A stretch of 64,000 bases of DNA, from positions 9,044,741 to 9,108,740 of the forward strand of contig NC_133224.1 of assembly GCF_040436345.1 (NCBI RefSeq), read 5' to 3'. Below are positions 29,601 through 32,600 of this stretch, in pieces (position 1 is the stretch's first letter; each line of letters begins with the position of its first letter). Source of the stretch: Pagrus major. Its lineage: Eukaryota > Chordata > Actinopteri > Spariformes > Sparidae. The translations under genes and the position numbers were made by a program. The notes under the pieces are model-generated. The model worked only from the letters and a program-made list of their open reading frames with translations. It did no database searches and had not been told where the DNA came from.

Positions 29601-32600
29601 ATGCATGTCTGCCTCTGTGAAATGCAATGACACACCAAATGCTCCGGTGAAGGATTGTTTTGTGTTTGGCATTATCAATATCTTGAATTGCATTTTGGAA
29701 AACCTGTTTCAGGATCAGTACTGCCATGAGGAAACTACTCATCTGCACTAAAAGGAGTCCCACATTCTAGACAAAACTTAGAAATTAGCTAGATTGCCCT
29801 TGGAGTGGAGAACACTGGTTCAAGCCCTCATGACTGCAAGCACCCGTCCTGCTGAGGTGTCCTTGAGCAGGACACTGAACCCCCGCCAGCTCCAGTAGCT
29901 CCCCCACTGACCCCTGACCTCCCTGCAGAGGAGAAAACTAAAAGAGAATTCCCTACGGGGACCAGTAAAGTGTCACATTATCCTGCTCCCCTCTCCGAGT
30001 CTCCACTACAGTCTGCCGCTTGTCTGCCCCCACAGAAGCCGCCGCCGCTGCTGGGGCCATCGGGGGAGCTGCGTGGGGAGCCGCCGGAGGGTCAGCCGCC
30101 GCTTGCCAGAAGACCAAGGAGCACGATGTGGGGCAGCGGCAGCGAGTGGTGGACCTCTGGAAGGACGGCAAGTCAGAGGGGGCCATCGGGCAGGAGCTGC
30201 GAATGCCCAAGTCCACGGTGCACAGCATCATCGTCAAGTACCGCCTCAGCAACACAGTGGAGAACCTGCCGCGCAACGGGCGACCAAAGAAACCCTGAGG
30301 GGGGGAGGGGGAGGCTCACCGAGAGGGGGGAGAAAAGAGGACATTTGGATAGAAAATCCTGGAATGTAACAAAAGAGGAGACTGAAAAGGAGAAGGTGGG
30401 AAAGGAGAGACGAAAAGAAGGAAGTCCAAAAAGGACCGACGGACGGAGCACTTTGACACTGCAGGAATGTGAGGAATATAAAGGGAGAAGGAAGTCTCAC
30501 AGGTGGATCGAATAAGGACCGAGGAGAGGACATGAAATGTGAAAAGAAGTGGCGGCACTTTGATCCGAGAGAACAAGCAATCAGCTGCAGAGGGAGAGGG
30601 AGAGAGGGCCAAAATAAGAAGGAAGAGGTGAAAAGCTGGCCCCGAGATGAAGCGCTAATGATGCGTGGGGGAAGAAAATGCGGCAGAGAGACAGAAAAAA
30701 AGAGAGATGACTTGTCTGGAACAAACAAATCCTCGAGTAAAAAGAGAAAAGGGCGCTACTGAAAAAAACTTCGAGGGGAAAGATGTCTGGAGGGGGGAAA
30801 AAAAAGACGGTATGTTAATGCAATCACAGGTTTTCAGGAATTCAGATATGAAGGCCGAAATGGAGAGAAATATTTTTTATAACTCCTCAGACGGATTTCT
30901 CAAAAACTTCTTTTTCTGTTTCTCCCTCTGCGGCGAAAAAAGATTTCCACCGGGATCAATTCTTCATCCGTCGGCTGACTGAGCAGGCCGGTCCCCTCGC
31001 TCTGACCCTGCACTCCCTCATTCCTCCACAGTCCTCCACTCCTCCGTCTCTCTTTCTCAGTCTCTCTCACACACACACATACATATAAATATATATATTT
31101 ACACTGTGGACCTCACACACAACCGAGAAACCTGCAAAGAACCTAATTTATCTGCTGAGTACAGGCAGATGAGGCTCGAAATAGAAAGGGACAAAGTGGA
31201 CTCAAAGAAAAGAAAAGAAAAGAAAAGAAAAAAAAGTTTTCTAAGTATAAAACACTACTTCCCATGGACTCTCTTGCCCTAGCATTCCTGAGTCCAACCA
31301 AGCAGAGAAGCAAGAACCATAGATATAAAAAATAAAAAAAACCTTGGATGTTGCCTTTGTCCAACATTCAGTAGCAGCACTGCTCTGACTCAATCTGATG
31401 GACTAGTATTGAGATATGTACTGTATTACAAAGCATATTTACTATTGCACCTTTATTTGTGGGGGGGGGGACACTTAAAGGGGAATATCACTCCATTTCC
31501 TGTTTTTAAGCTTCCTCACAGCCAAAAAAGTCAGTGTTCACGAGCAGCTCTTCCCTCAAGCTAAAGACTGTAATCTGTCATCGAAAAGAAAAAAAGGAGA
31601 CTCCGTTCGAGGCGTTTTTGTTCTTTAAGCTGCTTTATTGTGACAGCGTGATGGATTCCACGCTGGAAAATGTCCCCCGATCCCCGAGAAAATAAAACAC
31701 TCTGGACTGTGTCATCGTTTTTCCAGCTCAGCGTGTGTGCAGTAGAGCTGTACATCAGCGTGACATCCCAGACTTAAGAGCAGGGCGAACTTCCTCTGAA
31801 GAAAGAGGAGGTGAACGGTTACGCAGTCCAAACTTTTTCTAAGAACTGTGGGTATTTTTAAGCTAAAATTGAGTGGTATTTCCCTTTAAGCTTGAAGGAC
31901 TTAAAGACCAGGTATATGTGGCAGTGGTGCGGCCTGCAATGAGAACTATACTGTGTGTGTGCGTGAATGTGTTTTTCGTTCATGTGTCTGTGTGCACTGC
32001 CATTTTCATCAAACTTGTGTTTGATGTCAGATTTGGTGCCAAGATGATGCATTTTGTTACTTAGAAGACGAGAATGTTTTTTTTACAAACCCTTTTTCTT
32101 TTTCACAGAATAAGCTAAACTTCTCAAATGTATCTTGTAACGCTCTAAAAAAAAATTAATTAAACCTTAAAGCTGGGCTAATTAGGGCTGCACAATTAAT
32201 CGAAATATAGCAATTTCTTTTATTTTGAAAGTTTTGGATAGTTGTGATGCAGAATGATAAATCCCGCAAATCGTGAATCATATCGTGATATCCGTCACAA
32301 TAATCAGAATATGATTTTTTTTTTGACATATCGTGCAGCGCTAGCACTAATCAATAATTTTATATCCAACATGGATCAAGCTACACTGTCACTCATGGTG
32401 ACAAACCCCCAGAGAAGTATGCATTTCCTCTCAGCTTAACAGAACATTTTAGTGTCTTTCAGTTTGTTGTTTTGGTTTTACAGCTCACAAATGTACCATG
32501 TTGGTTCGGTCATCAACATCGTTTCCAGCTGCAGGCAGCTGTTTTCAGTGAAAAAGCTCTAATAAACACACTGTACACCACTTGCCCAGCGCCAAACAAA

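What the first reader, a model, noticed from the sequence alone, without database searches (positions are those of the whole stretch)
30036..30298. A transposase-type helix-turn-helix exon positioned to become an alternative C-terminus of CHD3
Seen: a pyrimidine-rich acceptor, an 87-residue frame that continues exactly from the phase-1 donor at 26435, an Ala/Gly linker, the motif series [10 protein letters not shown] / GKSEGAIG / [12 protein letters not shown] / [13 protein letters not shown], a stop, and no DDE domain after it. Known: Tc1/mariner transposases start with an HTH of this form followed by an AT-hook-like GRP; host-transposase fusion genes, where splicing attaches such a domain to a host regulator, are documented in vertebrates. 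Inference: a CHD3 isoform that carries its own sequence-specific DNA-binding module. I do not know of one for CHD3, but cannot exclude that it is annotated.
Basis: partly seen in the sequence, partly recalled or inferred. Interest (0 to 1): 0.88.

Follow-up and report, generated by a model that had tools for sequence, protein, structure and literature searches.

The report
Ancient transposase tail on fish CHD3
In this fish genome the gene for the chromatin remodeller CHD3 holds a predicted alternative last exon whose core matches the front DNA-binding piece of a Sleeping Beauty-type transposase; CHD3 protein models from ray-finned fishes as far apart as reedfish and sea bream carry that core almost letter for letter, and it likely lets one form of the remodeller be aimed at DNA directly.

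Summary
An 87-residue terminal exon (30036-30298) continues in frame from the CHD3 donor at 26435, inside the 10-kb intron before the ordinary last exon (36622-36725, tail ...GEVICIDD). Its 62-residue core is a Sleeping Beauty-type PAI helix-turn-helix plus GRPKK where the transposase has its GRRR AT-hook. Pfam HTH_SB scores 51 bits (cut-off 43); the Sleeping Beauty PAI structures match at E 4e-8 and 2e-7. Neither RED nor DDE follows in frame.

It is neither unique to this fish nor decaying. The same core ends all 147 protein models that I could see, all from ray-finned fishes (reedfish, sturgeon, bowfin, eels, mormyrid, characin, pike, percomorphs). 52 of 62 positions are invariant, and 144 of 147 use the same junction. 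Against reedfish the core is 94% identical, the part before the exon 80%. Both eel CHD3 copies keep it. So it is an ancient, strongly constrained host-transposase fusion, already in automatic annotation; I found no paper describing it.

Likely mechanism, untested: choosing this exon swaps a SUMO-binding-type tail for a DNA-binding tail, giving a DNA-addressed CHD3/NuRD isoform. I saw no RNA reads and could not test tetrapods or sharks.

The parts
26309..26435 (+). Shared CHD3 exon before the choice; ends in a phase-1 donor (CAG|GTCAGT)
30036..30298 (+). Predicted alternative last exon: split E codon, 86 residues, stop 30296-30298
30038..30109 (+). Ala/Gly-rich linker, variable between fishes, predicted disordered (pLDDT under 50)
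30110..30277 (+). PAI-type helix-turn-helix; predicted helices at 30113-30163, 30176-30199, 30209-30265
   Evidence: Pfam HTH_SB; PDB 6URS and 2M8E; model
30278..30292 (+). GRPKK, colinear with the GRRR AT-hook-like motif of Sleeping Beauty; kept in 147 of 147 models; low model confidence
   Evidence: colinearity by eye
31331..31336 (+). AATAAA, candidate poly(A) signal of the HTH isoform (motif only)
31691..31696 (+). AATAAA, second candidate poly(A) signal (motif only)
36622..36725 (+). Ordinary CHD3 last exon, tail [38 protein letters not shown], SIM-like end

Best explanation
The stretch is a predicted alternative last exon of CHD3, with a core conserved across ray-finned fishes that matches the PAI helix-turn-helix and AT-hook-like motif of a Sleeping Beauty/Tc1-type transposase, and it would likely give one CHD3 isoform its own DNA-binding tail. 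Shown: the exon, its splice signals, the match to Sleeping Beauty PAI, and near-invariance of the core in protein models from reedfish to sea bream. Inferred: the exon was captured from a Tc1/mariner element before reedfish split from other ray-finned fishes. Inferred: splicing 26435 to 30036 with poly(A) near 31331 or 31691 makes the HTH form, while splicing to 36622 makes the ordinary form with the SIM-like VICIDD tail. Inferred and untested: the switch changes the CHD3/NuRD address from SUMO-modified partner proteins to DNA. The DNA site is probably not that of present-day Sleeping Beauty ends, because several contact residues differ.
For: HTH_SB 51.2 bits. 6URS and 2M8E PAI at E 4.1e-8 and 1.7e-7, 22 and 21 of 51 residues identical. 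All 147 models seen end in the same 62-residue block, 52 positions invariant; 144 share the GSFxS-E/D junction. Acanthopagrus vs reedfish model: 58 of 62 in the core against 1557 of 1953 before the exon. Two eel CHD3 proteins, 84% identical overall, both keep it. AlphaFold gives three helices, 33 of 86 residues at pLDDT 90 or more; Pax paired-domain chains are among the close folds. 18 of 22 positions aligned to the modelled Sleeping Beauty-DNA interface are invariant, and basic residues stand at SB 33, 36, 45 and 47. Net charge +7, pI 10.3. An invariant W sits where H19Y stabilises Sleeping Beauty PAI and lowers non-specific binding. [quoted passage not shown]
Against: No RNA evidence was seen; most isoform models are computational. 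SB PAI alone binds weakly (stabilised PAI, KD 0.5-0.7 mM; PMC11754664 passages). Contacts K30, R44, H48 and H49 of SB are not kept. Nearly the whole 62 residues are frozen, not only the DNA face, which also fits a protein-interaction role. Foldseek gave 0 of 774 matches at E up to 0.001, and both fold rankings are unspecific. The GRPKK end has low model confidence. I did not compare the fish VICIDD tail with the human CHD3.1 tail in any call.
Confidence: 0.66

Rival explanations
1. The tail is a protein-interaction module: the captured PAI domain now mediates contacts with itself or another NuRD or chromatin protein, and DNA binding is lost or secondary.
For: The whole 62 residues are frozen, not only the DNA face. 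Contacts K30, R44, H48 and H49 of Sleeping Beauty are replaced. PAI also mediates transposase oligomerisation in Sleeping Beauty (PMC7827188 passages), and PAI alone binds DNA weakly.
Against: Net charge +7, pI 10.3; basic residues kept at SB 33, 36, 45 and 47; 18 of 22 interface positions invariant; GRPKK kept in 147 of 147.
Confidence: 0.22
2. The exon mainly serves to end the transcript early and remove the SIM-like tail, a splicing/polyadenylation switch in which the encoded HTH hardly matters.
For: It would replace the VICIDD tail, and human CHD3.2 simply lacks the SIM (PMC3472778 passages).
Against: Loss of a tail needs no particular residues, yet 52 of 62 are invariant while the linker in the same exon varies freely.
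Confidence: 0.07
3. It is a transposon relic that automatic pipelines stitched to CHD3, and no real isoform exists.
For: No RNA evidence was seen here; most hits are predicted isoforms, and three of 147 have odd junctions.
Against: Same core and same junction from reedfish to sea bream, with few substitutions; a neutral relic of that age would not be recognisable.
Confidence: 0.03
4. The domain comes from a Pax-type paired domain and not from a transposase.
For: Pax PAI halves are close in fold, 0.6 A over about 40 columns.
Against: By sequence the only strong solved relatives are Sleeping Beauty PAI, and HTH_SB passes its cut-off.
Confidence: 0.02

Closest known systems
Host-transposase fusion genes (KRABINER, SETMAR, CSB-PGBD3; PMC12062965 passages; Cosby 2021 itself not held)
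   Same: Transposase DNA-binding domain joined to a host chromatin or transcription regulator, acting or predicted to act through DNA binding
   Different: Here an alternative last exon of a NuRD ATPase, only the PAI half plus an AT-hook-like motif, shared by reedfish, sturgeon, bowfin and teleosts; the survey cited in that paper dealt with tetrapods
F-box A2 proteins of Caenorhabditis with a Tc1/mariner HTH (PMC12062965 abstract start and passages)
   Same: Tc1/mariner HTH captured by a host gene family
   Different: Different host gene, phylum and position; a section heading there says that HTH is not involved in the role tested
Sleeping Beauty transposase PAI subdomain with GRRR AT-hook (2M8E, 6URS; PMC7827188 and PMC11754664 passages)
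   Same: Three-helix PAI fold followed by a G-R AT-hook-like motif; 21-22 of 51 residues identical
   Different: No RED subdomain and no DDE domain in frame; contacts K30, R44, H48, H49 replaced; W at position 19
Human CHD3.1 / CHD3.2 isoform pair (PMC3472778 passages)
   Same: Alternative CHD3 C-termini that set recruitment
   Different: The human choice is SIM or no SIM; the fish choice would be SIM-like tail or DNA-binding tail

Membership tests
Sleeping Beauty-type HTH (Pfam HTH_SB) | Score above the curated cut-off | tested here: met
   51.2 bits against 43
Sleeping Beauty-type HTH (Pfam HTH_SB) | Significant sequence match to solved PAI structures | tested here: met
   6URS 4.1e-8, 2M8E 1.7e-7; next match 0.74
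Sleeping Beauty-type HTH (Pfam HTH_SB) | PAI fold by structure comparison | tested here: inconclusive
   Three helices predicted; no Foldseek match at E up to 0.001, fold rankings unspecific, Pax PAI among close ones
Tc1/mariner transposase | RED subdomain and DDE catalytic domain in the protein | tested here: not met
   Stop codon directly after GRPKKP in the window; all 147 models end with this block
Host-transposase fusion gene | Transposase domain and host domains in one predicted protein | tested here: met
   147 models; the printed domain lists show PF25787 together with CHD, PHD, chromo or helicase domains
Host-transposase fusion gene | Fusion transcript observed as RNA | not testable with these tools
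   No RNA data held; only gene models seen
Host-transposase fusion gene | Purifying selection on the captured domain | tested here: met
   At protein level only: 52 of 62 positions invariant in 147 rows. dN/dS not computed, no fish DNA other than the window
Host-transposase fusion gene | Captured domain binds DNA | not testable with these tools
   Only residue mapping and a predicted fold
CHD3 (NuRD ATPase) | CHDNT, PHD, chromo, helicase, CHDCT2 | tested here: met
   CHDNT, PHD and CHDCT2 by Pfam on window frames; helicase and chromo exons by eye; tail region 99% identical to named CHD3 of Acanthopagrus

The most novel reading that the evidence does not exclude
Ray-finned fishes, which are reported to lack TRIM28 and KRAB zinc fingers, run a self-addressed NuRD: alternative use of this captured exon turns CHD3 from a SUMO-recruited remodeller into one that reads DNA through a domesticated Tc1-type PAI domain, perhaps first to silence Tc1-like transposons and later to control host genes.
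Probability: 0.2. Interest if true: 0.92.

Novelty: new member of a known kind. Interest (0 to 1): 0.72.

Why it matters
CHD3 is a NuRD ATPase whose known recruitment route goes through partner proteins such as SUMO-modified KAP-1. A frozen, transposase-derived DNA-binding tail, chosen by exon use, would be a direct DNA address for a remodeller and an old transposase capture. It is testable in laboratory fish by deleting one small exon (medaka, platyfish and turquoise killifish models carry it; zebrafish is not among the models I saw). It also bears on how ray-finned fishes silence transposons without TRIM28 and KRAB-ZNF (PMC11603059 abstract and passages).

Tried and rejected

Not resolved: presence in tetrapods, lungfish, coelacanth, gar, zebrafish or sharks. 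each found 171 proteins and listed 120; one search found one. Together I saw 147 distinct proteins, all ray-finned fishes by the names printed. If the two sets of 171 coincide, about 24 remain unseen.

Paper searches bearing on prior description: 0 papers; 48 papers, 15 listed, none of these with CHD3; 16 papers, 10 listed; 4 papers, 3 listed; 2 papers. No listed title or abstract start describes such a CHD3 tail. Of the two, PMC8616336 names CHD3 once, in a reference on plants; PMC11980090 (Xenopus transposons) I did not open. The library holds only open-licence PMC papers.

Own errors: searches used a wrong reading frame (starts 30037 and 30039), so the empty PDB result and alignment A1 are void; replaced. 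In one search the ordinary-tail join was off by one base; corrected. In one search the region given ended six residues before the end of the 808-residue query.

Full report
What is there. The window holds most of a fish CHD3 gene on the + strand: CHDNT, PHD and CHDCT2 are found by Pfam and helicase and chromo exons are readable in the frames by eye. The shared exon 26309-26435 ends in a phase-1 donor. The ordinary last exon lies 10 kb on, at 36622-36725, and reads [38 protein letters not shown]. Between them, exon 30036-30298 gives E plus 86 residues and a stop. Candidate poly(A) signals AATAAA lie at 31331 and 31691.

How widespread and how constrained. Three protein searches returned 147 distinct proteins that I could see, all fish by name; most are called CHD3, some are unnamed and one is labelled CHD5. 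They include reedfish (P0125), sturgeons (P0122, P0123), bowfin (P0126), mormyrid (P0138), eels and Albula (P0128, P0139, P0140, P0143), Denticeps and Coilia (P0131, P0146), Astyanax and Sinocyclocheilus (P0148, P0142), pike (P0145), Polymixia (P0121) and many percomorphs. All 147 end in the 62-residue block; 52 positions are invariant. Many of the 147 are isoforms of one species, so they are not independent. 144 have the junction GSFxS-E/D; P0006, P0122 and P0144 do not and look like incomplete or misjoined models. Between the Acanthopagrus and reedfish models the block is 58 of 62 identical, the part before the exon 1557 of 1953, the preceding exon 25 of 42. In a set of 11 proteins from 10 species the block has 56 of 62 invariant columns; 222 of 2050 windows of that length do as well or better, the mean being 38. 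So it ranks with the conserved core of CHD3 (helicase 426 of 450 and CHDCT2 161 of 170 against reedfish), while the linker in the same exon varies.

Age. A tree of 17 CHD3 proteins without the tail, rooted at its midpoint, follows fish relationships broadly. Anguilla rostrata has two CHD3 proteins, from contigs of different length, 84% identical. One groups with Albula outside the other teleosts (99/98 for all teleosts; 90/86, open, for the rest), the other with Conger. That fits the teleost genome duplication, though the key fork is weak. Both keep the tail. The capture therefore likely predates the split of reedfish from other ray-finned fishes (about 380 million years, recalled). Absence from tetrapods was not tested: about 24 of the hits may be unseen.

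Mechanism. Human CHD3.1 has a SUMO-interacting motif at its extreme C-terminus that binds SUMO-modified KAP-1; CHD3.2 lacks it (PMC3472778 passages; CHD3 SIMs also in PMC5577459 passages). The fish ordinary tail ends in VICIDD, which looks like such a motif (consensus recalled; no call compared it with human). Using exon 30036-30298 removes that tail and puts a PAI domain in its place. Ray-finned fishes are reported to lack TRIM28/KAP1 and KRAB-ZNF, with TRIM33 proposed as substitute (PMC11603059 abstract and passages). I infer an address switch, from SUMO to DNA.

Residue evidence for DNA binding is mixed. Of 22 aligned positions at the modelled Sleeping Beauty-DNA interface (PMC11754664 passages), 18 are invariant in the 147 CHD3 models. 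Basic residues stand at SB 33, 36, 45 and 47 but not at 30, 44, 48 and 49, which are K, R, H and H in Sleeping Beauty. The invariant W at SB position 19 stands where H19Y was shown to stabilise PAI and, in SB100X, to weaken non-specific binding. The same paper reports that the stabilised PAI alone binds its core site weakly (0.5-0.7 mM). A tail on CHD3 could rely on avidity with the remodeller's own chromatin contacts and the AT-hook, or it could serve protein contacts, which SB PAI also makes.

Known or new. Host-transposase fusions are a known kind (PMC12062965 passages; Cosby 2021 not held). This member is in automatic annotation as CHD3 isoform X1 and the like, but five paper searches found no description (open-licence papers only). 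I file it as a new member of a known kind, with unusual age, host gene and alternative-last-exon form.

Limits. No RNA, no fish DNA other than the window, no binding data. The window's species is not known; the 88-residue query region is 99% identical to Acanthopagrus. The window's own genome could not be searched.

Noticed in passing
57002-59145 and 60485-62177: A direct duplication: six matched blocks, 87-98% alike, copies 3.0-3.5 kb apart.
   Followed up: partly
56576-56848, - strand: Frame that looks by eye like the C-terminal part of a SAT1/SAT2-type acetyltransferase; Pfam gave no match on this piece.
   Followed up: partly
30038-30109: The Ala/Gly linker of the exon is long in spiny-rayed and related fishes and about six residues in reedfish, sturgeon and bowfin.
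   Followed up: partly
36702-36725: The ordinary CHD3 tail ends in VICIDD, which resembles a SUMO-interacting motif at the extreme C-terminus.
   Followed up: partly
P0140 and P0143 (Anguilla rostrata): Two CHD3 proteins from contigs of different length, 84% identical, both with the HTH tail; one groups with Albula outside the other teleosts.
   Followed up: yes
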